From Actinotignum schaalii (GTDB lineage Bacteria > Actinomycetota > Actinomycetes > Actinomycetales > Actinomycetaceae), in the NCBI RefSeq assembly GCF_000724605.1, contig NZ_CP008802.1:2046001-2110000 (forward strand): a stretch of 64,000 nt of DNA. Direction: 5' to 3'. A program made the position numbers and the translations under genes. Under the pieces are notes generated by a model that was not told where the DNA came from, did not search any database, and saw only the letters and a list, made by a program, of their open reading frames with translations. This document shows positions 1 through 14,965 of the stretch, one piece after another; position 1 is the stretch's first letter, and every line of letters starts with the position of its first letter.

Positions 1-675
1 ATCACCTCCATGGGAATCACGGTGGCCCTCAAAGGCCACGCCGGTGTGGATCCCTTCACCGCCATGCTCCAGGGCGTGAGCTACGTGACCGGGCTGTCCT
101 TCTCCTGGGTGGTGCCGCTCGTCAATATCGCCTTGCTCGCGATCATTATCCCCTTCGACCGTAAAATCTTCGGGCTGGGCACCGTCCTCAATTTCACCCT
201 GGTCGGGGTGCTCGTCACCGAATTCACCAAGGTCTTAGATTCCATCTACGTTTTCACCTACTCGGTACCCGGAATGCTCATCCACCTGGCGGTAGGCCTC
301 CTGCTTTTCGCCTTCGGACTTTCCCTCTACATCACCCCGGATCTCGGGCAGGGCGCCGCGGACGGCATCGCCCCGGTCCTGGTGCGCCGCTTCCCGCAGC
401 GTTCCTACCGTTTCTTCCGCATCGCCCAGGATTTCACCGTGATTATCATTGCCCTCCTGCTCTTCCGCTTCGATCTGAGTGGCGGCGTGATCGGGGTGGG
501 AACCGTGGTCATGGTGGTCGGCATCGGCGTCGTCGTTGATTTCTTCAACCGCACGGTTGCCGGAAAGCTGGTAGGAGCGCCGTCGCCCCTCACCACGCAA
601 GCACAAGCACAACCGGAACCGGCCGCAGAACTTTCGCACACATCCGCTGTTCTTCATCAAAGGAGCGCATCATGA
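1..675 (+). CDS. YczE/YitT-like integral membrane protein, 5' end cut off by window edge
   Basis: The frame is open to the left edge, so the ATG at 10 is probably internal; the first visible residues (GITVALKGHAGVDPF) match the end of the first membrane helix of YczE-type proteins, where an Ala/Gly-Val-Asp-Pro-(F/W) motif follows helix 1. About four further hydrophobic helices follow, and the C-terminus is a hydrophilic Gln/Ala/Pro-rich tail. YczE/YyaS proteins are small multi-pass membrane proteins, suspected transporters with no settled substrate. The stop codon overlaps the ATG of the glycyl radical enzyme gene (ATGA at 672-675), so the two are translationally coupled, which argues that this protein serves the same pathway, perhaps moving the substrate or product. 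The family call rests on pattern recognition only. Confidence 0.75.
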   Translation: MTSMGITVALKGHAGVDPFTAMLQGVSYVTGLSFSWVVPLVNIALLAIIIPFDRKIFGLGTVLNFTLVGVLVTEFTKVLDSIYVFTYSVPGMLIHLAVGLLLFAFGLSLYITPDLGQGAADGIAPVLVRRFPQRSYRFFRIAQDFTVIIIALLLFRFDLSGGVIGVGTVVMVVGIGVVVDFFNRTVAGKLVGAPSPLTTQAQAQPEPAAELSHTSAVLHQRSAS

Positions 676-3083
676 CAAGTACCGTACCCACGCGCGAAGC
701 GACCTTGAGTTTTCTGGCTCCCGAGCGCACCGCGTTCCTCAACGAGCGCATGCGCGCGGCCGTGCCGGCCATCTGCACGGAACGCGCCCGCATCGTCACG
801 CAGTCCTACCGCGATAGCGAAGGCGAACCGGCCGTGATCCGGCGCGCCAAGGCCCTGCGCGACACCCTCGCTCATATGAGTATTTTTATCGACGACGCAG
901 AACTCATCGTGGGTAACCACGGCTCGAAACCGCGCTCGGCCCCGCTGTTCCCCGAATTCGGGCCGCTGTCCGAAAAGGAACTCGATCTTATGCCGGTGCG
1001 CAAAGTCGATACCCTCCAGGTCAGCCCGGAACAAAAACGCGAATTATTGGACGAGATCTATCCCTACTGGGTGAATCGCTCCAATGAGGACCTGGCCCGC
1101 CACCTCCTCGACGAGGAAACCAACCGGGTGCTTTCTGCCGATAATCGGCCCTTCGATACCCGCTCGCGGGCACGCTCCGGCTACGGGCACTATATCCCCA
1201 ATGTGCGGCGCATTATCGAAGGTGGCTTCATCGCGGTGGAAAACGAGGCGCGCACGCGTTTGGCGGAGCTTTCCCGCGGGGACGCGAATTATTCTGATAA
1301 GCGCGTTTTTTACGAAGCGGTGCTGATCGTGGTGGATGCCGTGCGTATTTTCCAGCAGCGGTTCGCGGAGCTGGCCGAGCGCATGGCGGCCGACTCCGTG
1401 GATCCCGGGCGGGCCGCCGAATTACGGGCCATCGCGGAAAACTGCCGGCAGGTTCCCTACCGCCCCGCGCGCACGTTCTGGGAAGCCTGCCAGGCCTACT
1501 GGTTCGTGATGCTCATCGACTATTGCAGCCAGAACGGCTCGGCCATTTCCGCCGGACGTTTCGACCAGTACTGCTACCCCTACCTGCGCGCCGACCTGGA
1601 TTCCGGGCGGCTGAGCCGCGAAGAAGCCCAAACAATTCTTGACGCACTGTGGGTCAAACACATCGATATCATCAAGGCCTGCACCTATTCTTCGGCGCGC
1701 AATAACGGCGGTTTCTCCACATCGGTGGCCCTCACCCTGGGCGGTGTGGATGAAAACGGGGAGGATGCCGTCAACGAGCTCTCCTATATGTGCCTGGATG
1801 CCGAACAGGCCGTTTTCAATTCCGAACCGAATGTTTCCATCCGCGTCTCGCATAAAACTCCCGATGCTTTCCTCGACCGAGTGCTGCGCATCCTCGTGGA
1901 AAACGAAGGCGGGAAGGATCCTTTCTTCAACGACGACGTGATTATCCCCGGCCTTGTTGAGCACCGCCATATGAGCCTGAAAGATGCCCGAGATTGGGCG
2001 ATTGTGGGCTGCGTGGAACCCACCGGGCAGGGGAATACCATGGGGCGGACCAATTCCTGCCACTTCAACCTGGCGAAATGCCTGGAGCTGGCCCTTCATG
2101 ACGGGCGCTGCCCCATGAGCGGGGAACAGCTGGGCCCCCACACCGGGGACTTCACCCAGATGCAGAGTTTTGCGGAGGTGCAGCGTGCCTATGCCGCGCA
2201 GGTGGATTACTTCGTGGAAATGATGGTCTCCACCCTCAATACCATCGAGCTGCTCCACGCCCGCGAAACACCCCATATTTATTGCTCCACCGTGCTCGAT
2301 GGTTGCCTGGAAAGCGGGCGGGATTGCACCGCGGGCGGCGCGGTTTATGATGCCACCGGGGTGAACGGGGTGGGTCTGCCGGACGTGGTGGACTCCCTGG
2401 AAGATATCCGCGAACTCGTTTTCGAGCGTAAGGTGATGACCGCGGCACAGCTGCTGGAGGCCACCGCCTCCGATTTCGCCGATGAAGTGATCCAGCATCG
2501 CTGCCTCAACGTGGCCAAATACGGTAACGACCTTACCCGAGTGGATGACCTGGCCCAATTCGTGACCTCGCAATATACCGATTCGGTATACCGGTTCCGC
2601 TCCCCGCACGGCGGCTATTTCATCCCCGGCCTGTTCTCCCTTTCCTCGAATACTCCGCTGGGCCGGCAGGTAGGGGCCTTGCCTTCCGGGCGCGCAGCCG
2701 GCACGCCCCTGGGTGACGGCGGGATTTCCCCCAAGCACGGGATGGATACCAATGGGCCCACGGCGGTGGTCTCCTCCGTGGCGAGCTGGGATCATTCCGC
2801 GGCCATCAACGGGGTGAATCTCAATATGAAATTCGTTCCCGCCATGCTCAAGAAACCGGCGGATCGCCAGAAGCTCATTGACCTCATCCGCGCCTATTTC
2901 GTGATGGGTGGGATGCATATCCAATTCAATATTCTCTCCGGGGAAACCCTGCGGGCCGCGCAGCGCGAACCGGAGAAATACCGCGGGCTGGTGGTGCGGG
3001 TGGCCGGATATTCGGCCTTCTTCGTGGAGCTGGACCGCGAAATCCAGGACGAAATTATTTCGCGCACGGTCCAAGAGTTGTAG
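672..3083 (+). CDS. Glycyl radical enzyme, dehydratase/lyase type (PFL-like)
   Basis: 803 residues, the usual size for glycyl radical eliminases. The thiyl-radical cysteine is Cys447 in the motif GCVEP, with the general-base Glu449 shared by glycerol, propanediol and hydroxyproline dehydratases and choline/isethionate lyases; pyruvate formate-lyase itself has Cys-Cys instead. The radical glycine is Gly779 in RVAGYSAFF, 24 residues from the C-terminus. The N-terminal PFL domain covers roughly residues 15-660. The start has AAAGGAG 7 bases upstream and overlaps the upstream gene's stop. A radical-SAM activase follows directly, then a DeoC-type aldolase. No microcompartment shell genes are present, so the aldehyde product would be handled in the cytosol. 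Substrate is unknown from sequence; the aldolase neighbour suggests a product that is a beta-hydroxy aldehyde such as deoxyribose-5-phosphate (inference). Confidence 0.93.
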   Translation: MTSTVPTREATLSFLAPERTAFLNERMRAAVPAICTERARIVTQSYRDSEGEPAVIRRAKALRDTLAHMSIFIDDAELIVGNHGSKPRSAPLFPEFGPLSEKELDLMPVRKVDTLQVSPEQKRELLDEIYPYWVNRSNEDLARHLLDEETNRVLSADNRPFDTRSRARSGYGHYIPNVRRIIEGGFIAVENEARTRLAELSRGDANYSDKRVFYEAVLIVVDAVRIFQQRFAELAERMAADSVDPGRAAELRAIAENCRQVPYRPARTFWEACQAYWFVMLIDYCSQNGSAISAGRFDQYCYPYLRADLDSGRLSREEAQTILDALWVKHIDIIKACTYSSARNNGGFSTSVALTLGGVDENGEDAVNELSYMCLDAEQAVFNSEPNVSIRVSHKTPDAFLDRVLRILVENEGGKDPFFNDDVIIPGLVEHRHMSLKDARDWAIVGCVEPTGQGNTMGRTNSCHFNLAKCLELALHDGRCPMSGEQLGPHTGDFTQMQSFAEVQRAYAAQVDYFVEMMVSTLNTIELLHARETPHIYCSTVLDGCLESGRDCTAGGAVYDATGVNGVGLPDVVDSLEDIRELVFERKVMTAAQLLEATASDFADEVIQHRCLNVAKYGNDLTRVDDLAQFVTSQYTDSVYRFRSPHGGYFIPGLFSLSSNTPLGRQVGALPSGRAAGTPLGDGGISPKHGMDTNGPTAVVSSVASWDHSAAINGVNLNMKFVPAMLKKPADRQKLIDLIRAYFVMGGMHIQFNILSGETLRAAQREPEKYRGLVVRVAGYSAFFVELDREIQDEIISRTVQEL

Positions 3084-3172
3084 CCGCGGCCGAGGCAACG
3101 AGCCTCGCGCAAGTCCCGCGCGGACCCGCGCAGCAGCCCTGAGCAGAGCCCAAGCAGAAGAAAGGAGTGCAG

Positions 3173-4192
3173 ATGTCCCGAGTTCGCCTCGCCACGGTTT
3201 TCAACGTGCAGCGGTATTCGATTCACGACGGCCCGGGCATCCGCACCGTCATCTTCCTCAAGGGCTGCTCGCTGGCCTGCGGGTGGTGCGCCAACCCGGA
3301 ATCGATCAACGGTTTCCGCGAAGTGATGTTCGCTCCCGATAAATGCATCGACTGCGGGATCTGCATCGACCTTGCCGAAAACGGCGAAGTGACGCGCGGC
3401 CCCGAAGGCACGGTGGTGCTCCACCGGGAGAAAATCAAGCCCGCGAACCTCGAATGGGCCGAAAGCTGCCCCACCGGGGCGCTGAGCGTGTACGGCCAGC
3501 GCCGCACCGTGGACGACCTGGTGGAGGAAGCCGCCCGCGACAAACTCTTCTTCGACCGCAGCGGCGGGGGAGTGACCTTCTCCGGCGGCGAGCCGCTCCT
3601 GCAGGCCCAATTCGTGGCGCAGGCCTGCGAAGAACTCCACCGGCGCGGCATCACCACCGCGGTGGAGACCTGCGGGAATGTGCGGCTGCGGGCCATCCAG
3701 CTGGTCGAACCGCATATGGACCTTTTTATTTGCGATCTCAAATTACTGGACGACGACGCACACCAGCGTGTAACCGGAGGAGGCAACGCCAGGATTCTTG
3801 AAACAATTTCCTATCTCGGGGAACACCACGGGGCGAGCACGATGGTGCGCACTCCGCTCATCCCGGCCGTCACGATGGCCAGCGCCCAGATCGACGCCAA
3901 TATCGCTTTTCTACGCTCGGTGGGAGTGCGCCACTATGACGTGCTTCCTTTCCACCGCCTCGGCACCGGAAAGTACACCGGGCTGGGCCGCACCTATCCC
4001 TTCGCGCATACCGAAACACCCGCGGATGAACTCGTGGAAGAGTATCGCGCCCGGATTCGCGCGGCCGGAATGAGCACGGAGTTCCCCGAAACTCCCTTGA
4101 TCCACGCGGATGTATCCGCCCTACCCGATTCTTCCGAATCTGAATCTGAATCTTCACAACCCAATCACATGGCCCGCCGGGCCATGGCATAA
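3173..4192 (+). CDS. Glycyl radical enzyme activating enzyme (radical SAM)
   Basis: 339 residues. It carries the activase signature HDGPGIRT at residues 18-25 and the radical-SAM cysteines Cys32-x3-Cys36-x2-Cys39 (GCSLACGWC); the GGEP motif lies further on. It would abstract hydrogen from Gly779 of the preceding enzyme. The ferredoxin-like insert holds only four cysteines (Cys58, 61, 64 and 99), enough for one extra [4Fe-4S] cluster, where many eliminase activases have eight. The C-terminal ~20 residues are Ser/Glu rich and look disordered. I chose ATG 3173 over GTG 3167 because the AAAGGAG ribosome site at 3161-3167 overlaps the GTG and sits 5 bases before the ATG. The gene lies 89 bp after the glycyl radical enzyme and 31 bp before the aldolase, consistent with one operon. 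Confidence 0.93.
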   Translation: MSRVRLATVFNVQRYSIHDGPGIRTVIFLKGCSLACGWCANPESINGFREVMFAPDKCIDCGICIDLAENGEVTRGPEGTVVLHREKIKPANLEWAESCPTGALSVYGQRRTVDDLVEEAARDKLFFDRSGGGVTFSGGEPLLQAQFVAQACEELHRRGITTAVETCGNVRLRAIQLVEPHMDLFICDLKLLDDDAHQRVTGGGNARILETISYLGEHHGASTMVRTPLIPAVTMASAQIDANIAFLRSVGVRHYDVLPFHRLGTGKYTGLGRTYPFAHTETPADELVEEYRARIRAAGMSTEFPETPLIHADVSALPDSSESESESSQPNHMARRAMA

Positions 4193-4223
4193 CCGCCCGC
4201 GAGGGCAGAAAGAAAGGATAATC

Positions 4224-4931
4224 ATGGCACAGCCGGAGAAGAAAGCCGCCGAGATGACGCGCGACGAACTCGCCTCCTACATCGATTACTCCATCCTCAA
4301 GCCGCAATTCACCACCGAGGAAGTGGTGGAACTGGCGCATACCGGTATCAATTACAAGTGTGCCACGCTGTGCATCAATCCCTGGGCCCTGGATGTGGTA
4401 GCACCTTTGCTGCCCGGGACCGGGGTGGGAATCTGCGTCGTCGCCGATTTCCCCTTCGGGCAGGGCACCGCAGCCGATAAGGAAATGCTGGCGCGTGCGT
4501 ATGTCTCGCGCGGGGATATTCAAGATCTTGACCTGGTCATTAACTACGGGCTGCTGCGCGAAGGCAAGTGGCAGCAGGCCGCCGAGGAAATTAAGCCGGC
4601 TATCGCGGTGTGCCGCGAGGCGGGCGTGGTCACCAAGGTGATCCTCGAAACCGATGCTCTCGATAAGAAGGCTATTGAGGGCGGGGTGGAAGCGGTGATC
4701 GCCGCCGGCGGTGACTACGTGAAGACCTCCACCGGTTTCTACACCGGCGGGCCCACGGTTGGCGGGGCGCGCGATGTGATGGCGCACCTCATCGAGGTGA
4801 CCGATGGCCGGGCCAAGGTCAAGGCTTCCGGCAATGTGCGCGACCAGGCCCACTACTTCGATCTCATCGATATGGGCGTGGACCGCATCGGGGTGGGTTA
4901 CCGCTCCGTGCCGGTGGTGCTCGGGGAGTAG
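4224..4931 (+). CDS. deoC: DeoC-type aldolase (deoxyribose-5-phosphate aldolase family)
   Basis: 235 residues, a class I TIM-barrel aldolase. Motifs in order: IDYSILKP (family IDHTLLKP), CINP, DFPFG, DLVIN, then the Schiff-base lysine Lys167 in VKTSTGF and the second active-site lysine Lys200 in VKASG. Both catalytic lysines are therefore present. Family enzymes split 2-deoxyribose-5-phosphate into acetaldehyde and glyceraldehyde-3-phosphate. The start at 4224 follows AGAAAGGA by 5 bases; upstream in-frame codons have no ribosome site and give a non-conserved extension. It is the last gene of the glycyl radical cluster and is not with nucleoside phosphorylase genes as classical deoC is, so its substrate is more likely the glycyl radical enzyme product (inference). 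Variation in the first motif (His to Tyr, Thr to Ser) may indicate a subfamily with altered substrate. Confidence 0.88.
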   Translation: MAQPEKKAAEMTRDELASYIDYSILKPQFTTEEVVELAHTGINYKCATLCINPWALDVVAPLLPGTGVGICVVADFPFGQGTAADKEMLARAYVSRGDIQDLDLVINYGLLREGKWQQAAEEIKPAIAVCREAGVVTKVILETDALDKKAIEGGVEAVIAAGGDYVKTSTGFYTGGPTVGGARDVMAHLIEVTDGRAKVKASGNVRDQAHYFDLIDMGVDRIGVGYRSVPVVLGE

Positions 4932-5151: not shown

Positions 5152-6282
5152 CTAGCCGAACCAGCGCTGCACCGCGGCCACGATTTCGCGGTCGAACGCA
5201 TCGTCGGAGTGATGCGCGGCGATCCACTCGCGGAAACTCCCGCCGCAGGCCGCGTCCAGATCCGCCCGGCATTGCGCGGTGCGGGTGAGGACCCGGGTGA
5301 GCATGGCCGCCGCGGCCGCCTCATCGCCATCCGGATAGAGGAAGGGGTAATTCTCCGGAAGTAGCGCGCGGGCCCAGGGCACGTCCGGGAACACCCCGAG
5401 CGCCCCGGCACCCAGGGCCTCCACGTAGGAGAGCCCGTAGGATTCCTCCGCGGCGGTGGCCAGGAAGGCCGTGGTGTGGGCGAGGGCCTGGTAATACGAG
5501 GTGCGGGTATCGGTCAGCGGCCCCACGTGCATCCACGGCAGGCGCGAGTACCGCATGGCCTTCTCGGAAACCAGGTGTGCTTCGTGCAGGCGCATCTCCA
5601 CCGTGAGCGGGATGAGCTCGCGCACCCGGCTCAGCACGTCCATGAAGAAATCGGGGCGTTTGCGCGCCGAAAGATAAATCGCGGGGTAGAGCACCACCGG
5701 GACCTCCGGTTCGCGCCGCTCCTGCACGTGGTCGAGGCGGAAACCGAGATTCACCCAGCCAAGCTTGAGCCGCCCGGCCAGCGGGGGCACCGTCCACTTA
5801 TTCACCATCTCGCGGATCTCACCGGCGGTGCGCTCCGAATTGGCGAACGTGGGGAAGAGCGCGCAGGAGAGGGCCACCGGGGCGATCTCCTCCGCGCTGT
5901 CCAGGGTGGAAACCGGCAGCCACACAAAATTCATGAGGCGCGGGGCGGGCTGGCCAGCTTTGCGCAGCCGCGCCCACAGGGCCGGGGTGTCATGCACATC
6001 CATAGTGATGACCACCGTATCCGGGGCGAGGCTTTCCGGGGAAACAACAGCCACCGCATCGGAGGAGCGCGGTCCGGCTGGCTGCGCCGTCGTACCTACG
6101 TTTCCCGCACCACTCGCGGCCGCGTTGGCACCATTTGCGGCCGCGCCCGCCGCGGGGTCAAGCACAACGGCATCGGGGAAAATACGCAGAAGGCGGCGCA
6201 GCAGGGTGGCGCCGGCATCCTGGCCGGCTATTTTTCCTTCCGGGCTGATCTGAGCGCCGGACCAGTGCACGGCGATATTCAT
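5152..6282 (-). CDS. GT-B type glycosyltransferase, unknown acceptor
   Basis: 376 residues. The C-terminal half has the nucleotide-sugar binding pattern of family 1-like glycosyltransferases: a stretch AEESYGLSYVEALGAGAL, where Glu-x7-Glu coordinates the donor, followed by a short helix. The N-terminal half (MNIAVHWSGAQISPEG) is less typical, and residues ~45-75 are an Ala/Gly-rich variable linker. The start overlaps the stop of the pyrophosphatase gene by 4 bases (ATGA), so the two are translated together. I cannot tell the acceptor; cell-envelope glycan or a modified nucleoside are both possible. No signal peptide or membrane helix is visible, so it should be cytosolic. Confidence 0.7.
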   Translation of the reverse strand: MNIAVHWSGAQISPEGKIAGQDAGATLLRRLLRIFPDAVVLDPAAGAAANGANAAASGAGNVGTTAQPAGPRSSDAVAVVSPESLAPDTVVITMDVHDTPALWARLRKAGQPAPRLMNFVWLPVSTLDSAEEIAPVALSCALFPTFANSERTAGEIREMVNKWTVPPLAGRLKLGWVNLGFRLDHVQERREPEVPVVLYPAIYLSARKRPDFFMDVLSRVRELIPLTVEMRLHEAHLVSEKAMRYSRLPWMHVGPLTDTRTSYYQALAHTTAFLATAAEESYGLSYVEALGAGALGVFPDVPWARALLPENYPFLYPDGDEAAAAAMLTRVLTRTAQCRADLDAACGGSFREWIAAHHSDDAFDREIVAAVQRWFG

Positions 6283-8912
6283 GCCAGGACTCCCTTCTCG
6301 GGTTCGGACGACGTATGTGTTCCGGAATCGGCCCGTTTTCCGGTGACGGTGTCAAACCGGGAACGCGGTTCGAGCGCCGGTTCGGATTCAGGTGAAGATT
6401 CGGGCTCGGGCTCGTCGAGCAGCGGATCCTCCGTGGAGGCCTGGATGCGCATGCTGTAGAACGAGCGGTAAATAAAGACGAGCGCGAGGGCCCCGAAGCA
6501 CACCGCCAGGCCGGTGACCACCGCGGTGAGATTCTGGGTGTTGAGGCTCACGGCCAGCTCCACGGCGAGCAGGCCGAAGAGGGTCGTGAACTTAATAATC
6601 GGGTTGAGGGCCACCGAGGAGGTGTCCTTGAAAGGATCACCCACGGTATCGCCCACGATGGTGGCATCGTGCAGCGCGGTGCCCTTCGCGTGCAGGTCCA
6701 CCTCCACGATCTTCTTCGCGTTATCCCAGGCCCCACCCGCGTTCGCCATGTAAATCGCCTGGTAGAGGCCGAAAATGGCAATGGAAATGAGATAGCCGAT
6801 AAAGAAGTACGGCTCGATAAACGCGAAGGAAAGAGTAGCGAAGAAGACCGCCAGGAAAATCGTGAGCATCCCCTGCTGGGCGTACTGGGTACAAATTTCG
6901 ACGACGCGCCGCGAGTCATCGTGGGAAGCCCGCTCCGCATTTTTATCCAGATGGATGGACTCCTTGATGAACTCCACCGCCCGGTACGCACCCGTGGTCA
7001 CCGCCTGCATCGACGCGCCGGAGAACCAGAAGATCACCGCGCCCCCGCTGATAATCCCCAGCAGGAACGGGGCGTGCATGAGGGACAGCATCTCGATCCC
7101 GCTGGTCAGCCCACCGGTCAGCCCGATAATAATGGAGAAAATCATCGTGGTAGCACCCACCACCGCGGTGCCGATGAGCACCGGTTTGGCGGTGGCCTTG
7201 AAGGTATTGCCGGCGCCGTCGTTCTCCTCCAACATGAGCTTGGCGCGATCCCATTGCGGGGTGAAACCAAAACCGGAGCGAATATCGGCGTCAATATCGG
7301 GGAGCGCCTCAATGCGGGAAAGCTCGTAGACCGACTGGGCGTTATCCGTAACCGGGCCGTAGGAATCCACCGCGATGGTCACCGGCCCCATGCCGAGGAA
7401 CCCGAAAGCCACCAGCCCGAAAGCGAAAACAGCCGGCGCCAGCATGAACTCACCGAGCGTGGCATCCGCGATCACGAAAGCCCCGGCCATGAGCCCCACG
7501 ATGGTGATGCCCAGCCAGAACGCGGAGAAATTCCCGGCCACCACACCGGAAAGAATATTGAGGGAAGCCCCGCCCTGGCGCGAGCTCTTCACCACTTCAC
7601 GCACGTGCCGCGACGTGGTGGAGGTGAAGACCTTGACCAGCTCGGGGATAAGCGCCCCCGCCAAAGTCCCGCAGGTCACGATAGTGGCGAGCGGGAGCCA
7701 CAATGCGCCGTCGTTCCCACCCAAAACAAGCCAGGAGATCCCGTACACGCAAGCAATGCAGAAAATCGAGGTGAGCCACACGAGTGAACTCAGCGGTTTT
7801 TCGAAATTGAGGGTGGTGGCGCTCGCGTAGCGGGTGGCGGCCAGGCGCGCGTTGAGGCCGTAGGCCAGCGCCGAGGCGATAATCATTGCCACGCGCACCG
7901 TGAAGACCCACACCAGCAGGGTGGCTTGCAGCGCCGGGTCATGCACCGCTAGCACGATGAAGGTCACCAGCGCCACCCCGGTCACCCCGTAGGTTTCGAA
8001 ACCGTCCGCGGAGGGGCCTACCGAATCCCCGGCATTATCGCCCACGCAATCGGCGATCACGCCCGGGTTACGTGGGTCGTCCTCATCAATTTTGAAGACG
8101 ATCTTCATGAGGTCGGAGCCAATATCGGCAATCTTCGTGAAAATACCACCGGCGATGCGCAGCGCCGAAGCGCCCAGCGATTCCCCAATCGCGAAGCCAA
8201 TAAAGCACGCTCCGGCCACATCCGCGGGCAGGAACAGCAAAATGACCAGCATCATGAGCAATTCCAGGGAGATCAGCACCATCCCGATGGACATCCCCGA
8301 ACGCAGCGGCACCTGGTGCAGCGGGAGGGGCCGCCCGCGCAGCGAAGCGAAAGCCGTGCGCGCATTGGCCAGGGTATTCACCCGAATCCCGAACCACGCC
8401 ACCGCGTACGAGCCACCCATGCCCAGCAGCGAGAACGCCACCACAATCGCGAGCTTCCCCCAGGTGAAGCCCACCAGGAACTTGTAATAAACCACGATGA
8501 CCGCGGTAATAAAAGCCCAGAGCACCAGCAGGAACCGCCCCTGTTTGACCAGGTAGGCCTTGCAGGTTTCGTAAATGAGGTCGGCGACCTCGGCCATGGC
8601 CCGATGCACCGGAAGCTTGCGCAGATTCATATACGTGATGAGCCCGAAGCACAGCCCCAGCACGCAGACGCCCACCCCGATGAGGAGGAGCAGCCGGCCG
8701 GACACCCCGCCCGCCGCGCTCACGCCCGACAGATCAGGCAATACGATATTTGCTTCACCTCCGTGCACAGTTGCCTCACCGGCGGGCGCGCTCGCGGAGG
8801 CGGCGCACGAACCTAGGGCAACGGGAGCCAGCGCGAGCGCCCCGAGCAGGGCCAGCCGCCGGCGTGGACGCGAGGTGTTCTTGTGTGTGGATACAGAAAA
8901 ACAACGTCCCAT
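6279..8912 (-). CDS. hppA: Membrane-bound proton-translocating pyrophosphatase
   Basis: 877 residues with about 16 membrane helices. It couples hydrolysis of pyrophosphate to ion pumping across the cytoplasmic membrane. Catalytic motifs are present: EDDPRNPG and GDNAGDS in the first half, and GDTVGDPFKDTS in the second. Lys572 in GNTFKATAK occupies the position whose Lys marks K+-independent pumps (Ala in K+-dependent ones), so this should be a K+-independent, probably H+-pumping form. The segment VGPSADGFETYG differs from the commoner AGMAADLFETY and places it in a divergent clade. The N-terminus is longer than usual and looks like a signal sequence with a lipobox-like ALGSC near residues 32-36. 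GAGGT lies 5 bases before the ATG, supporting this start. The C-terminus is acidic and Pro/Glu rich. Confidence 0.93.
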   Translation of the reverse strand: MGRCFSVSTHKNTSRPRRRLALLGALALAPVALGSCAASASAPAGEATVHGGEANIVLPDLSGVSAAGGVSGRLLLLIGVGVCVLGLCFGLITYMNLRKLPVHRAMAEVADLIYETCKAYLVKQGRFLLVLWAFITAVIVVYYKFLVGFTWGKLAIVVAFSLLGMGGSYAVAWFGIRVNTLANARTAFASLRGRPLPLHQVPLRSGMSIGMVLISLELLMMLVILLFLPADVAGACFIGFAIGESLGASALRIAGGIFTKIADIGSDLMKIVFKIDEDDPRNPGVIADCVGDNAGDSVGPSADGFETYGVTGVALVTFIVLAVHDPALQATLLVWVFTVRVAMIIASALAYGLNARLAATRYASATTLNFEKPLSSLVWLTSIFCIACVYGISWLVLGGNDGALWLPLATIVTCGTLAGALIPELVKVFTSTTSRHVREVVKSSRQGGASLNILSGVVAGNFSAFWLGITIVGLMAGAFVIADATLGEFMLAPAVFAFGLVAFGFLGMGPVTIAVDSYGPVTDNAQSVYELSRIEALPDIDADIRSGFGFTPQWDRAKLMLEENDGAGNTFKATAKPVLIGTAVVGATTMIFSIIIGLTGGLTSGIEMLSLMHAPFLLGIISGGAVIFWFSGASMQAVTTGAYRAVEFIKESIHLDKNAERASHDDSRRVVEICTQYAQQGMLTIFLAVFFATLSFAFIEPYFFIGYLISIAIFGLYQAIYMANAGGAWDNAKKIVEVDLHAKGTALHDATIVGDTVGDPFKDTSSVALNPIIKFTTLFGLLAVELAVSLNTQNLTAVVTGLAVCFGALALVFIYRSFYSMRIQASTEDPLLDEPEPESSPESEPALEPRSRFDTVTGKRADSGTHTSSEPEKGVLA

Positions 8913-9791: not shown

Positions 9792-12263
9792 CTAGCTCTG
9801 AGCGGACCCGGAAGAATCCGAGTCGCTGGCAGAGCTCGCCGTGGCAGCTGGCGGCGTCGTCGTACCGGAACCGGTACCGTGCGCGCCCGCACCCTTACGG
9901 TGATCGTAACTGGGAATCAAAGCCGGGTCGCCCACGGCAGCGTATTCCGCCACCACCTTCTTCTCCAACTTGGTCGGGAAGAGCTGGGTGGGCGCGTAGA
10001 AGTTGGACTCCTGGTAGGGATCCTCGGAGGTCACGTACTTCTTCGCGGTGATCACCCGGATGATCTTGATAATCGCGCACACCAGCACGAAAGCTACCGT
10101 GGCCAGGAAGATGACCGAGAGCCAGCCCTGGATGAAGGTGTTACGCACAATCGCGGACTGGATACCGATAGCTTCGGTATCCCCGGCGGCCTGCGCCTTC
10201 GCCAAGGCTGCCTTCGCGTTGGTGTTCTGGGTGAAGTACCCGATGGCGGCGTCGGAGGAGAAAATCTTCTGCCAGGACGCCGCGAAGGTGACCACTAGGT
10301 CGAAGGTCGCGGCGATGCCCGGGATCCAGGCCCACTTCGCCCAGCCCTTATTGACCACCACCACGGTGCACAAAATCAGGGCCAAAGCGGCGATGAGCTG
10401 GTTGGCTACGCCGAAGAGCGGGTAGAGGGTTTGGATACCGCCGCGCGGGTCGGTCACGCCCATGAGCAGCAGCGAACCCCAGGCCGCCACCACCACGGCC
10501 GTGGTAATCCACGCGCCCACTCGCCAGGAGGGATCCTTGAACTTGGGCAGCACATTGCCCAGGGCGTCGCCCAGCTGGAAGCGGGCTACGCGGGTCACGG
10601 CGTCCACGGCGGAGAGAATGAACAGCGCCTCGAACATAATCGCGAAGTGGTACCAGAAGCCCATCATGGCCTGGCCGCCACCTACCTGGTGCAGAATATG
10701 GGCGATGGCCACCGCGAGGGTGGGTGCACCACCGGTACGCGAGGTGACGGAGGTTTCCCCAACGTCCTCGGCGACCTTATCGAAGGCTTCCGCGCCCACG
10801 TAGGTCTTCTCATTGCCGTTCTCATCCCAGGATTCCCAGCGGGCTTCCACCGAATTGCCGTGGGTATCGGTGACCGCGAGGTTTTGCACCGCGGCTGCCG
10901 AGAGCTCGGAACGGTTATCGGTCATCTGCACGATGGCCGTGCCCGCCAGCTTATCGGTGGTGTGCTCGGAGGTATTCATACCGAAGTAGATACCCATATT
11001 GAGGGAGGAGGCCGCGGCCAGCGCCATAATCGCCACGAAGGATTCCATGAGCATGCCGCCGTAGCCGATCATGCGGACCTGGGATTCCTTCTGGATCATC
11101 TTCGGGGAGGTACCCGAGGACACCGTTGCGTGCATCCCGGAGAGCGCCCCGCAGGCGATGGTAATAAAGAGGAAGGGGAAGAGTTCCCCGGCGAATACCG
11201 GGCCGTCCGTATTCGAAGCGAATTCGGTGACGGCCGGCATTTCCACCAGCGGGCGCACGATGAGGATGCCCAGCGCCAGCACCACGATGGTGCCGACCTT
11301 CATGAAGGTGGACAGGTAGTCACGCGGGGTGAGGAGCAGCCAGACCGGCAGCACGGCCGCGAAGAAACCGTACACAATCATGCACCACACGAGGGTGGTG
11401 GGGGACAGGTGCAGGAACGCCTGGCCGAAATCGGATTCCGCCACGTAGCGGCCCCCGATAATCGCACCGAGCAGCGCAATGAACCCAACAATGGACACCA
11501 TCGTGATATTGCCGGGCTGTACGAAACGCAGCCACAGGCCCATGCACAGCGCGATGGGGATCGTCATACCGACGGCGAAAACGCCCCAGGGCGAATCGGC
11601 CAGCGCGTTCACGCAGATCATGGCGAGCACGGCCAGCACGATCATGAGCATGACGAGGATCATGACCGCGGCCACGGCCCCGCCGATCTTCCCGATTTCA
11701 TCCACGGCCATCTGGCCGAGGCTGCGCCCGCCGCGGCGCATGGAGAAGAAGAGGACGAGCATGTCCTGGACGGCACCGGCCACGCACACCCCGAAAATAA
11801 TCCACAGGGTGCCGGGCAGGTAGCCCATCTGGGCGGCCAGCACCGGGCCCACCAGCGGGCCGGCACCGGCGATAGCGGCGAAGTGATGCCCGTAGAGCAC
11901 CACGCGGTTCGTCGGGTCGAAATCGCGTCCGTTATTGATGCGTTCGGCCGGCGTCGCGTTGGAATCGTCGGGCTTCATAATGGTTTTTTGGATAAAGAGC
12001 GCGTAGAAGCGGTAGGCGATCATGTAGGTGCAGACCGACGTCACCACAAACCACGCGGTATTGACTTGTTCACCGCGATAGAAGGCGAGCATGTACCAGC
12101 CCGCAACGCCGAGGGCTGTTACGAGGACCCACACCGCGATGCGCGGCAGCGTCCACTTCGTATGCGGTTTTGTTCCGACCGGAACACCGTGGCGGTTCCG
12201 GATAATATATTTTTCCTCTTCTTCGCTATAGCTCGGAAGAGCAGTGTCAGCTGGTGCACTCAT
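9792..12263 (-). CDS. cstA: CstA family carbon starvation transporter
   Basis: 823 residues with about 16-18 membrane helices. CstA/BtsT proteins import pyruvate and possibly peptides when preferred carbon is scarce. Recognisable family stretches are TPAERINNGRDFDPTN near residue 95, GPLVGPVLAAQMGYLPG, and SGTSPKMIQKE in the middle. A hydrophilic extracytoplasmic segment of ~90 residues (around TDNRSELSAAAVQNLAV) and a Ser/Thr/Ala-rich C-terminal tail make it longer than the ~700 residues typical of enterobacterial CstA. I start at 12263 because GGAG lies about 8 bases upstream and the preceding 35 codons look unrelated. It forms an operon with ybdD. Control is unclear, as no CRP-like site is obvious. 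Confidence 0.92.
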   Translation of the reverse strand: MSAPADTALPSYSEEEEKYIIRNRHGVPVGTKPHTKWTLPRIAVWVLVTALGVAGWYMLAFYRGEQVNTAWFVVTSVCTYMIAYRFYALFIQKTIMKPDDSNATPAERINNGRDFDPTNRVVLYGHHFAAIAGAGPLVGPVLAAQMGYLPGTLWIIFGVCVAGAVQDMLVLFFSMRRGGRSLGQMAVDEIGKIGGAVAAVMILVMLMIVLAVLAMICVNALADSPWGVFAVGMTIPIALCMGLWLRFVQPGNITMVSIVGFIALLGAIIGGRYVAESDFGQAFLHLSPTTLVWCMIVYGFFAAVLPVWLLLTPRDYLSTFMKVGTIVVLALGILIVRPLVEMPAVTEFASNTDGPVFAGELFPFLFITIACGALSGMHATVSSGTSPKMIQKESQVRMIGYGGMLMESFVAIMALAAASSLNMGIYFGMNTSEHTTDKLAGTAIVQMTDNRSELSAAAVQNLAVTDTHGNSVEARWESWDENGNEKTYVGAEAFDKVAEDVGETSVTSRTGGAPTLAVAIAHILHQVGGGQAMMGFWYHFAIMFEALFILSAVDAVTRVARFQLGDALGNVLPKFKDPSWRVGAWITTAVVVAAWGSLLLMGVTDPRGGIQTLYPLFGVANQLIAALALILCTVVVVNKGWAKWAWIPGIAATFDLVVTFAASWQKIFSSDAAIGYFTQNTNAKAALAKAQAAGDTEAIGIQSAIVRNTFIQGWLSVIFLATVAFVLVCAIIKIIRVITAKKYVTSEDPYQESNFYAPTQLFPTKLEKKVVAEYAAVGDPALIPSYDHRKGAGAHGTGSGTTTPPAATASSASDSDSSGSAQS

Positions 12264-12468
12264 AGCTGAAACTCCATTTATATGGGCCGGCGCGGTCCGC
12301 GTGGACGGCAGCGCTGGCATCTCGAGCGGATCCTCGGTTGAGTACCCGGGTGGCGTACGCCACCACATCCGATAATAAACGCGTGCAACAGTATTGGGTT
12401 AACTTACGTTCGCGTTAGCGCGCTAATTGTGGGCTAGACCACTAAAACTGTGGCTCGCGGTGATGAAG

Positions 12469-12488: not shown

Positions 12489-12767
12489 GCCGTGGGGCGC
12501 TTTGGGGTGGAAATGGCGGTTTGGAGCCAGTTTCGCACCTATCGCAAGATGTAGGGGTGGTGGGCGGGTGGTGCCCCTATAGGTAGTGGTAAGCTCGCCC
12601 GGTGGATGCGAAACGCGGCGCCGAAAAAATGTGTTGCACATCATAAAGTTGGCGGGCGCGGGGCGAGAGTGGCGCGGCGTCGCCCTTTACAGGGCTGGGT
12701 GCGGCGGGCGCGGTGCAAAAAACGCACCCGTGTGGCGCACGAAGCACACCGGTGTCATTCTGGCCGA

Positions 12768-12783
12768 CTACTATATGTAGTGT
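12768..12783. promoter_or_regulatory. Candidate NrdR box upstream of nrdD
   Basis: CTACTATATGTAGTGT matches 13 of 16 positions of the NrdR consensus ACACWATATATWGTGT and lies 22 bases before the nrdD start, where NrdR would block transcription. A second box at the usual ~31-bp spacing is not clear; ACACCGGTGT at 12746-12755 is palindromic but a poor match and too close. Confidence 0.5.
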
Positions 12784-12805
12784 TCGATTTTTACGGAGGC
12801 ACAAG

Positions 12806-14965
12806 ATGTTGATTGATACCTCAACGACCACGGGGGTAGTCGTCACCAAGCGTGACGGTCGGTCGGTTAGCTTTGACGCCGGTAAGATCTACCGCGCAAT
12901 CGCGCTGGCAATGAACAGCCAGGGCATTGACGATTACGCATTCGTTGAGGAAGCCACCCGCACGGTGATCGATCATCTTGATGCTGCCAAGCTTGACGTT
13001 CCCACCATCCAAACGGAAGTGGAAAACGTGCTCATGGCCTCCCGCTACCCGCAGGTGGCGCGCGCCTATATCGAGTACCGCCACGATCGCGATACCGCGC
13101 GTGAACAGGCCATGGATATTTCGCGCTCCCTGGATAAGCTCATGCAGCGCGATAAGACGGTGGTCAATGAGAACGCCAATAAGGACTCCACTGTTTTTAA
13201 CACCCAGCGCGATCTGACCGCGGGTGCGGTGGCCAAGGCCTACGCTCTCAAGTACCTGCTGCCTCCGGCGGTGGCCAATGCGCATATTAAGGGCGATATC
13301 CACTTCCACGATCTGGATTACAACCCCTTCCAGCCCATGACCAATTGCTGCCTCATTGATATTGAAGGCATGCTCCGTGATGGCTTCCAGATCGGTAACG
13401 CCCGGGTGGAATCCCCGCGCTCGATTAACACCGCTACCGCGCAGATCGCTCAGATCATCGCGAATGTGGCCTCCAGCCAGTACGGTGGCTGCTCGGTGGA
13501 TCGCTGCGATGAAGTGCTCGCCCCTTACGCGGAACTCAATTACGCCAAGCACCTCAAGGATGCCGAGCGTTGGGTTGCTGAAGATAAGCGCGATGAGTAC
13601 TGCTGGGAAAAGACGAAGAAGGATATCTACGATGCCATGCAGTCCCTGGAGTATGAGATCAATACTCTCTACTCCTCGAACGGGCAGACTCCTTTCGTCA
13701 CCCTCGGTTTCGGCCTGGGCACCAACCGCTTCGAGCGGGAAATCCAGAAGGCGATCCTGACTATCCGCATTAAGGGCATCGGGGCCGATGGCCACACCGC
13801 GATCTTCCCGAAGCTCGTTTTCGGGCTGCGCCGCGGCGTGAACCTCAATCCTGAGGATCCTAATTACGACGTTAAGCAGCTGGCTCTGGAATGCTCCACG
13901 AAGCGCATGTACCCGGATGTCCTTTCCTATGACCGGCTCACCGAGCTGGAAGGCGATTACAAGGCTCCCATGGGTTGCCGTTCCTTCCTGCCCAAGTGGG
14001 TGGATCCGGAAACCGGTGAGGCCGTGAACGCCGGGCGTAATAACCTGGGTGTGGTCACCCTCAACGTGCCGCGTATCGCGCTGCAGGCGCGCGGGGATAA
14101 GCAGCGTTTCTGGAAGATCTTCGATGAGCGCATGCAGGTGGTCAAGGAAGCTCTGGTCTACCGGGCCCAGCGCTGCGAGGATGCCACTCCGGAAAACGCC
14201 CCCATTCTCTACCGCTACGGTGCCCTGGGTATCCGCGCGGAAGAAGGCGATGAGGACGTCACGAAGTTCTTCCACAACCAGCGTTCCACGCTTTCCATTG
14301 GCTACATTGGCCTGTACGAAGCGGCTACCGCGTTCTACGGCCCGAATTGGGAGCACAACGCGGAAGCGAAGGAATTCACCCTGGATATCGTGCGCCGGCT
14401 GAGCCAGTACGCCGACCAGTGGAAGAAGGAGTACCCCTACTGGTTCTCCGTGTACTCCACCCCGGCTGAATCCCTCACCAACCGTTTCTGCTCCATGGAT
14501 CGCGAGCGTTTCGGTGCGGTTCCGGATATCACCGCGAAGGACTACTACACGAATTCCTTCCACTACGATGTGCGCAAGAAGATCACTCCCTTTGAGAAGA
14601 TCGACTTCGAAGCGCCCTACGCGGAGTACACCAAGGGTGGTTTCATCCACTACTGCGAGTACCCCAAGCTGACCCACAACACCGCGGCTCTGGAAGCGGT
14701 CTGGGATTACGCTTACGATAAGGTGGCCTACCTGGGCACCAATACTCCTATTGATAAGTGCTACGAGTGCGGCTTCAACGGGGAATTTGATCCCACGGCG
14801 GAAGGTTTCAAGTGCCCGAATTGCGGCAATGATGATCCCGACCGTTGCGATGTTGTCAAGCGCACCTGCGGGTACCTTGGTAACCCGGTCAAGCGCCCCA
14901 TGGTGCACGGCCGGCACGAGGAAATCATTTCCCGCGTCAAGCACATGGACGGTCCCTGCGCTTAA
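12806..14965 (+). CDS. nrdD: Anaerobic (class III) ribonucleoside-triphosphate reductase
   Basis: 719 residues. It reduces ribonucleoside triphosphates to deoxy forms without oxygen. An ATP-cone allosteric domain occupies residues ~8-100 (RDGRSVSFDAGKIYRA), followed by the ten-stranded barrel with GGCSVDRCDE. The C-terminal zinc site is formed by CYECG and CPNCG, and the radical glycine is Gly689 in RTCGYLG, 30 residues from the end. The start at 12806 has ACGGAGG 7 bases upstream; longer in-frame starts lack one. The activase gene nrdG follows after a structured 162-bp gap. A candidate NrdR box lies just upstream. Confidence 0.97.
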   Translation: MLIDTSTTTGVVVTKRDGRSVSFDAGKIYRAIALAMNSQGIDDYAFVEEATRTVIDHLDAAKLDVPTIQTEVENVLMASRYPQVARAYIEYRHDRDTAREQAMDISRSLDKLMQRDKTVVNENANKDSTVFNTQRDLTAGAVAKAYALKYLLPPAVANAHIKGDIHFHDLDYNPFQPMTNCCLIDIEGMLRDGFQIGNARVESPRSINTATAQIAQIIANVASSQYGGCSVDRCDEVLAPYAELNYAKHLKDAERWVAEDKRDEYCWEKTKKDIYDAMQSLEYEINTLYSSNGQTPFVTLGFGLGTNRFEREIQKAILTIRIKGIGADGHTAIFPKLVFGLRRGVNLNPEDPNYDVKQLALECSTKRMYPDVLSYDRLTELEGDYKAPMGCRSFLPKWVDPETGEAVNAGRNNLGVVTLNVPRIALQARGDKQRFWKIFDERMQVVKEALVYRAQRCEDATPENAPILYRYGALGIRAEEGDEDVTKFFHNQRSTLSIGYIGLYEAATAFYGPNWEHNAEAKEFTLDIVRRLSQYADQWKKEYPYWFSVYSTPAESLTNRFCSMDRERFGAVPDITAKDYYTNSFHYDVRKKITPFEKIDFEAPYAEYTKGGFIHYCEYPKLTHNTAALEAVWDYAYDKVAYLGTNTPIDKCYECGFNGEFDPTAEGFKCPNCGNDDPDRCDVVKRTCGYLGNPVKRPMVHGRHEEIISRVKHMDGPCA

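What the first reader, a model, noticed from the sequence alone, without database searches (positions are those of the whole stretch)
1..4931. Glycyl radical enzyme plus DeoC aldolase: possible pentitol-phosphate dehydratase pathway
Seen: a coupled YczE-like membrane protein, a glycyl radical enzyme with GCVEP (Cys447, Glu449) and Gly779, its activase, and a DeoC-type aldolase with both lysines, in one tight run and with no shell proteins. Known: eliminases of this type dehydrate 1,2-diols to aldehydes, and DeoC splits 2-deoxyribose-5-phosphate. Inference: 1,2-dehydration of D-ribitol-5-phosphate or D-arabitol-5-phosphate gives exactly 2-deoxyribose-5-phosphate, because C2 chirality is lost. 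DeoC would then yield acetaldehyde and glyceraldehyde-3-phosphate. This would be an anaerobic route for pentitol or cell-wall ribitol-phosphate. I know of no established pathway of this form, though I cannot search.
Basis: partly seen in the sequence, partly recalled or inferred. Interest (0 to 1): 0.85.

Follow-up and report, generated by a model that had tools for sequence, protein, structure and literature searches.

The report
Uncharacterised radical enzyme–aldolase sugar pathway
An oxygen-sensitive radical enzyme, its activator, a sugar kinase and a DeoC-like aldolase form a small gene set that recurs in distantly related bacteria and probably breaks down a sugar-alcohol-like compound without oxygen, by a route that we did not find described.

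Summary
In detail: YczE-like membrane protein (cut by the window edge), glycyl radical enzyme (GRE; C447, E449, G779), activase and DeoC-type aldolase (D103, K167, K200). The operon begins outside the window with a PfkB sugar kinase, facing a DeoR regulator. The set is conserved: of 12 genomes found with this GRE clade (55-99% identity), 8, in three phyla, carry the same DeoC type and a PfkB kinase in the same locus; one more has that DeoC beside an ABC permease; three, one sublineage, lack it. The GRE meets only a broad subfamily cut-off, no equivalog, and has lost residues shared by glycerol and propanediol dehydratases. So a GRE feeding an aldolase is likely, but the specific pentitol-phosphate to deoxyribose-5-phosphate step is not shown. 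The aldolase is a separate subfamily with a remodelled phosphate loop; the six such genomes tested also have a higher-scoring DeoC; and a sister aldolase in the same genome sits with a ketohexokinase-family gene. The nearest known logic is anhydroglycolysis (YbiW/PflD with FSA aldolase), but the YbiW-like loci opened in this bacterial family carry FSA. Substrate unresolved.

The parts
1..675 (+). YczE-like membrane protein, 3' part (full gene G000 2045911-2046675, 254 aa); role unknown, transport is a guess
   Evidence: NF052291 87.6 bits here, 92.7 for the full protein, cut-off 205; overlaps GRE by 4 bases; similar gene in the G567 locus (48-52%) and beside the same DeoC type in G415 (53-57%)
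672..3083 (+). Glycyl radical enzyme, 803 aa, uncharacterised clade; C447, E449, G779 (roles by family homology, recalled)
   Evidence: PF02901 and PF01228; TIGR01774 739.7 of 678.2, no equivalog cut-off met; residues; trees
3173..4192 (+). Radical-SAM activating enzyme: CxxxCxxC motif plus ferredoxin-like Cys motifs
   Evidence: TIGR02494 313 of 174.35; motifs CSLACGWC, CIDCGICI, CPTGAL; start codon
4224..4931 (+). DeoC-type class I aldolase, 235 aa, 'GYRS' subfamily; D103, K167, K200 (M1 counted)
   Evidence: TIGR00126 147 of 117.3; start at 4224; motifs. My protein queries began at 4227, one residue short

Best explanation
The genes encode an anaerobic catabolic module: uptake (perhaps the YczE-like protein here; ribose-type ABC transporters in Bacillota), a PfkB kinase, a GRE eliminase with its activase, and a dedicated class I aldolase. 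The GRE most likely removes water (or opens a C-O bond) next to a radical carbon in a polyol-like compound larger than glycerol, giving a deoxy-sugar. As its phosphate, made by PfkB before or after the GRE step, this is split by the DeoC-like aldolase into a triose phosphate (or similar) and a small aldehyde or ketone, which fermentation enzymes reduce. Shown: the gene set, its conservation, catalytic residues, separate clades. Inferred: reaction type, order, products. Not known: the substrate.
For: GRE Cys/Glu/Gly and activase intact. PfkB + GRE + activase + GYRS-DeoC in one locus in 8 of 12 clade genomes: Actinomycetaceae (3), Chloroflexota (1), Bacillota (4), in five arrangements, so not just inherited gene order. 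In a ninth, G1236, the GRE lies on a 3.9-kb contig; its GRE has the DeoC-linked residue at 7 of the 7 positions that separate linked from unlinked members, and its genome has the aldolase beside an ABC permease. Ribose-type ABC genes lie in the loci of G397, G398, G1574, G1686; family searches were made for G397 and G1686, where the binding protein scores best on RbsB but below its cut-off. Changes at glycerol-dehydratase H281, S282, W445, H446, D447 argue for another, larger substrate. AdhE is over its cut-off in 5 of 7 genomes and could dispose of acetaldehyde, but is a general enzyme.
Against: No substrate evidence. The aldolase subfamily also occurs away from this GRE (L066, L088-L090, Enterococcus plasmids), so its chemistry need not be set by the GRE. 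The GRE clade also occurs without it (3 of 12). Those three are one sublineage, so the residue differences may be one event. An Arg at 459 is not constant in linked members (Ile in L078, L079). AdhE is below the cut-off in G567 and G400. In G398 GRE and aldolase lie 21 kb apart.
Confidence: 0.5

Rival explanations
1. One reading: GRE dehydrates ribitol- or arabitol-5-phosphate (or the free pentitol, then PfkB acts as deoxyribokinase) to 2-deoxyribose-5-phosphate, and the aldolase gives acetaldehyde and glyceraldehyde-3-phosphate.
For: The chemistry fits exactly; catalytic Asp/Lys/Lys kept and DeoC model cut-off met; a PfkB kinase is in the operon; AdhE over cut-off in 5 of 7 genomes.
Against: Remodelled phosphate loop; a higher-scoring DeoC in all six GYRS-DeoC genomes; paralogue with a ketohexokinase-family gene; no pentitol-specific gene recognised in the loci, though only part of their ORFs were searched against families.
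Confidence: 0.2
2. Variant of anhydroglycolysis: PfkB phosphorylates an anhydro-polyol such as 1,5-anhydroglucitol or -mannitol, the GRE opens the ring to a 1-deoxyketose phosphate, and the DeoC-like enzyme replaces FSA, giving hydroxyacetone and glyceraldehyde-3-phosphate.
For: Closest known GRE-on-sugar logic (PMC12441222, passages). The clade groups weakly with PflD (support 0.81). N82, N387 and K734 are shared with PflD and all YbiW-like sequences compared but not with the five other GREs compared. In E. coli the pflD stretch fetched shows no FSA gene, so FSA need not be adjacent.
Against: PflD model 591 of 1109. Identity 39% to PflD and 35% to YbiW, no more than the 39-40% to glycerol and propanediol dehydratases. 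The shared basic residue at WIN 343 is also Lys in glycerol dehydratase. Four of four YbiW-like loci opened in the own family, and E. coli ybiW-ybiY, have FSA close by, not DeoC. Position 447 (GD numbering) differs from both lyases.
Confidence: 0.2
3. The aldolase works on a ketose-1-phosphate with dihydroxyacetone phosphate (or hydroxyacetone) as donor; the GRE makes a deoxyketose that PfkB phosphorylates.
For: Paralogous aldolase (48%) is in a tight operon with a prokaryotic ketohexokinase-family kinase (PF25270, 202 bits, cut-off 35), a 6-phospho-beta-glucosidase-like and a PTS beta-glucoside-like gene, the latter two below their cut-offs. New Arg/Lys in the phosphate loop of the subfamily.
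Against: The three PfkB kinases of GRE loci searched (of eight) are nearest to IolC, fructokinase and ribokinase models, all below cut-off, not Khk. The Khk label rests on homology; the plasmid relatives are 22-32% identical, nearly all haloarchaeal and mostly unnamed.
Confidence: 0.15
4. Reverse order, as in fucose/rhamnose microcompartments: kinase and aldolase act first, the small aldehyde is reduced to a diol, and the GRE dehydrates that diol.
For: Known for GRM5 (PMC6325248, passages). A Gfo/Idh/MocA oxidoreductase-like gene lies in two loci (L078, L079) and an alcohol-dehydrogenase-like gene about 3.5 kb from the kinase in G567.
Against: Residues shared by glycerol and propanediol dehydratases (H281, S282, D447) are changed. 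No reductase was recognised in the other five loci, whose ORFs were not all searched. Shell-protein genes are absent from 7 of 9 genomes, and in G397 and G398 lie on other contigs than the GRE.
Confidence: 0.1

Closest known systems
Anhydroglycolysis (E. coli YbiW or PflD; FsaA/FsaB step recalled)
   Same: A GRE acting on a phosphorylated polyol-like compound, then a class I aldolase; DeoR-type regulator at the four YbiW-like loci opened in the own family
   Different: Aldolase is DeoC-type, not FSA; PfkB kinase instead of PTS phosphorylation; GRE 35-39% identical and below the PflD cut-off
B12-independent glycerol / 1,2-propanediol dehydratase GREs
   Same: Family, GCVEP motif, H164 equivalent; best PDB hits by score (1r8w, 5i2a)
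   Different: H281, S282, W445, H446, D447 and Y640 all changed
GRM5 fucose/rhamnose microcompartment
   Same: GRE plus aldolase in one locus
   Different: Class II fuculose-phosphate aldolase acts upstream of the GRE and shell proteins are present (PMC4207490, PMC6325248, passages)
SPU metabolosome loci with DeoC-like aldolase
   Same: DeoC-like aldolase proposed for sugar phosphates
   Different: No GRE mentioned in the passages seen; shell proteins present (PMC4207490)

Membership tests
Glycyl radical enzyme superfamily | PFL-like and glycine radical domains; thiyl Cys; radical Gly; own activase | tested here: met
Glycerol/1,2-propanediol dehydratase | Pocket residues H281, S282, D447 (numbering of 1r8w; roles recalled) | tested here: not met
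   S290, A291, N461 in the window protein
AM6P lyase PflD | NF007437 cut-off 1109 bits | tested here: not met
   591 bits; E. coli PflD gives 1725
AG6P lyase YbiW | Position in the YbiW clade; FSA gene close by | tested here: not met
   Outside the YbiW clade (that clade's support 1.0); DeoC-type neighbour instead
AG6P/AM6P lyase activity | Turnover of an anhydrohexitol phosphate | not testable with these tools
   Needs an assay
HypD, CutC, sulfopropanediol dehydratases | NCBIfam equivalog cut-offs 1000-1100 | tested here: not met
   525-554 bits; L027 (HypD) and L029 (HpfG) give 1548 and 1543
Deoxyribose-phosphate aldolase (TIGR00126) | Model cut-off 117.3 bits and catalytic Asp/Lys/Lys | tested here: met
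   147 bits; D103, K167, K200
Deoxyribose-phosphate aldolase (TIGR00126) | Canonical 5'-phosphate loop (GG after the second Lys; G-T/A-S; role recalled from E. coli DeoC) | tested here: not met
   GN and GVGYRS in the window protein; GG is kept in subfamily members L103, L074, L075
GRE microcompartment (GRM) | BMC shell proteins | tested here: not met
   PF00936: 0 matches in G000; 7 of 9 genomes tested have none
YczE membrane protein | NF052291 cut-off 205 | tested here: not met
   92.7 bits for the full protein
GRE-activating enzyme (TIGR02494) | Cut-off 174.35 bits | tested here: met
   313 bits

The most novel reading that the evidence does not exclude
A second 'radical glycolysis': a GRE of a new specificity turns a polyol into a 2-deoxy-aldose, PfkB adds the phosphate, and a re-tooled DeoC cleaves it to acetaldehyde and a sugar phosphate: an anaerobic polyol route in three bacterial phyla that needs no polyol dehydrogenase.
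Probability: 0.3. Interest if true: 0.8.

Novelty: new variant of a known kind. Interest (0 to 1): 0.6.

Why it matters
New GRE specificities have repeatedly exposed unsuspected anaerobic nutrient routes (choline, hydroxyproline, sulfonates, anhydroglucitol). Here four enzymes that travel together in three phyla give a directly testable pathway, and a DeoC subfamily now annotated 'deoxyribose-phosphate aldolase' may need re-annotation.

Tried and rejected
Rejected: membership in glycerol/propanediol dehydratase, HypD, CutC, sulfopropanediol dehydratase and PflD families. Rejected: a microcompartment at this locus. Paper searches joined 'glycyl radical (enzyme)' with deoxyribose-phosphate aldolase (2 papers), anhydroglucitol (10: 1), ribitol (47: 5), deoxyribose-5-phosphate (48: 2), Actinotignum (57: 1), with aldolase, kinase and genome neighbourhood (71: 18, 12 listed) and with polyol names (72: any 2 of 5 terms, 1,057 papers, 12 listed, none of these holding 'glycyl radical'); one search listed 30 of 281 papers since 2023 that hold 'glycyl radical' or 'anhydroglycolysis', one search gave 2 papers on terms of the anhydro pathway, none on ketohexokinase with DeoC terms. 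No such pathway showed in titles or abstract starts. Passages of four papers were read (PMC12441222, PMC4207490, PMC6325248, PMC11574389), no paper in full; the main text of the 2024 review PMC11574389 has no occurrence of YbiW, PflD or words beginning 'anhydro'. Only open-licence PubMed Central is held, so absence from print is not shown. GRE in plasmids: 0 of 151 matching records at 60% or more. Dropped: Arg459 as mark of DeoC-linked enzymes, since L078 and L079 have Ile, and its apparent match in YbiW, which moved in the second alignment. The kinase and the Gfo/Idh/MocA protein were too far from solved structures to name a substrate.
Full report
What is there. The four genes reported are present: a YczE-like membrane protein cut by the window start (1-675), a GRE (672-3083, 803 aa), an activase (best start 3173, to 4192) and a DeoC-type aldolase (4224-4931). 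The window is G000 2046001-2110000 in a 2.16 Mb genome. The nearest named record is Actinotignum timonense (Actinomycetaceae), GRE 99% identical. In the own genus 2 of 6 genomes have the GRE (G000, G455; not G452, G453, G454, G456).

Who has it. One scan of the public genome contigs gave 5 loci. Whole-genome searches found members of the clade in 3 of 213 genomes of the own family, 1 of 400 of the phylum sample around the Chloroflexi MAG G400, 5 of 397 of the family of G398 and 3 of 291 of its class; query genomes and already known hits are included. Together that is 12 genomes: G000, G455 (same coordinates as L005), G567, G400, G397, G398, G399, G1026, G1115, G1236, G1574, G1686. The tree puts all 12 in one clade with support 1.0, apart from PflD, YbiW, HypD, HpfG, glycerol and propanediol dehydratases. 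The other 9 GREs found at that threshold in 396 genomes of the own phylum are 37-40% identical.

Conservation of partners. An aldolase of the same subfamily and a PfkB kinase are in the GRE locus in 8 of the 12: G000 and G455 (PfkB-YczE-GRE-activase-DeoC), G567 (PfkB-YczE-GRE-activase, then DeoC and DeoR on the other strand), G400 (PfkB-GRE-activase-DeoC), G397 and G398 (GRE-activase, DeoR, acetyltransferase-like, PHP and DUF1349 genes, ribose-type ABC genes, PfkB, DeoC, over about 10 and 21 kb; Pfam names from G397), G1574 and G1686 (DeoC and GntR divergent from ABC genes, GRE, PfkB, activase, Gfo/Idh/MocA and PHP genes). In G1236 the GRE contig is 3.9 kb, but the aldolase is next to an ABC permease (by eye) on another contig. 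G399, G1026 and G1115 have no such aldolase: their best DeoC hits are 37, 37 and 32% identical and lack the GYRS loop. As a rough guide, one gene dropped at random in a 2.5 Mb genome lies within 25 kb of another 2% of the time. G000 and G455 are near-identical, and G397/G398 and G1574/G1686 are pairs of relatives, so about five lineages are independent; that is still not chance.

Active site of the GRE. Aligned to glycerol dehydratase (numbers of 1r8w; roles recalled), C433, E435, H164 and G763 are kept. H281, S282, Y339, W445, H446, D447 and Y640 become S, A, S, R, T, N and F. Most changes shorten side chains, as expected for a bulkier substrate. Basic residues fixed in the 11 full-length clade sequences and basic in fewer than 15% of 25 other GREs are R28, R159, R166, K415, H535 and R665 (partial G1236 has Lys at 665). 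R166 lies in the loop before H173 (GD H164) and could meet a phosphate; this is inference. Seven positions separate the 8 DeoC-linked from the 3 unlinked members (130, 171, 291, 405, 440, 463, 507), and G1236 has the linked residue at all seven; position 351 is S/T in linked and A in unlinked members. The unlinked are one sublineage, so this may be one change.

The aldolase is not ordinary. One search covered eight clade genomes. The six with the GYRS type (G000, G455, G567, G400, G397, G398) each also have a DeoC with a higher model score, 202 to 292 bits, against 145 to 171 for the GYRS type; the other two, G399 and G1115, lack the GYRS type. The ordinary phosphate loop was checked by alignment in one such DeoC of G000 (L071) and one of G567 (L063); the others are judged by score. 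The subfamily has an altered phosphate loop, mostly G-V-G-Y-R/K-S, and often lacks the second Gly after the second Lys. It occurs elsewhere: in G000 itself in an operon with a ketohexokinase-family kinase, a 6-phospho-beta-glucosidase-like and a PTS-like gene; in 3 genomes of another genus of the family (G415, G416, G421), once with YczE; and on Enterococcus plasmids, two of six opened, with an AraC regulator. So it is best seen as a sugar-phosphate aldolase of unknown specificity.

Comparison with anhydroglycolysis. A review states that E. coli YbiW and PflD, radical enzymes, convert 1,5-anhydroglucitol-6-P and 1,5-anhydromannitol-6-P to 1-deoxyfructose-6-phosphate after PTS phosphorylation (PMC12441222, passages). 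The FSA step is recalled; fsaA lies beside ybiY, the putative activase gene next to ybiW, while the pflD stretch fetched holds no FSA gene. In the own family, four of the seven YbiW-like GRE loci were opened: all four carry an FSA-like aldolase (38-40%) and a DeoR regulator. Thus GRE clade and aldolase type tend to go together, and the window clade's product is probably not 1-deoxyfructose-6-phosphate, though a DeoC-type enzyme doing the same job cannot be excluded.

Verdict. The module and its conservation are solid. The general logic, radical elimination followed by aldol cleavage of a phosphorylated deoxy-sugar, is the best reading at 0.5.

Noticed in passing
L066 4885-9357 (G000 about 1478884-1483356): Operon on the - strand: GYRS-type DeoC, GH1 6-phospho-beta-glucosidase-like, prokaryotic ketohexokinase-family kinase (PF25270), PTS beta-glucoside IIC-like; a GntR-like gene (by eye) divergent. 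A lac-like set for an unknown glycoside.
   Followed up: partly
L003 8999-9733: Second YczE-like gene, about 74% identical to the one in the operon, just beyond the divergent DeoR gene.
   Followed up: partly
L091-L094: Four genomes of another genus of the same family with YbiW-like GRE, FSA-like aldolase and DeoR: likely anhydroglycolysis loci in Actinomycetota.
   Followed up: partly
window 12713-14965: ORF that looks like a class III (anaerobic) ribonucleotide reductase, another GRE (recalled, not searched).
   Followed up: no
window 6279-8912 and 9792-12368 (- strand): Look like a membrane pyrophosphatase and a carbon-starvation (CstA-type) transporter (recalled, not searched).
   Followed up: no
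L003 1642-6084: 1480-aa protein with many DTDGDGxxDGDE-like repeats and a sortase-like C-terminus (by eye), i.e. a repetitive surface protein.
   Followed up: no
L047 and L048 (G1026 contig 35): The same GRE region appears near both ends of one contig in opposite orientation with equal scores; an assembly artefact or an inverted duplication.
   Followed up: no
L044 16284-18391 and L045 6657-8780: Acetyltransferase-like, PHP and DUF1349 genes recur between GRE and transporter in two Bacillota (Pfam for L044, L045 by eye); a PHP gene also in L078 and L079. Possibly side-product control.
   Followed up: no
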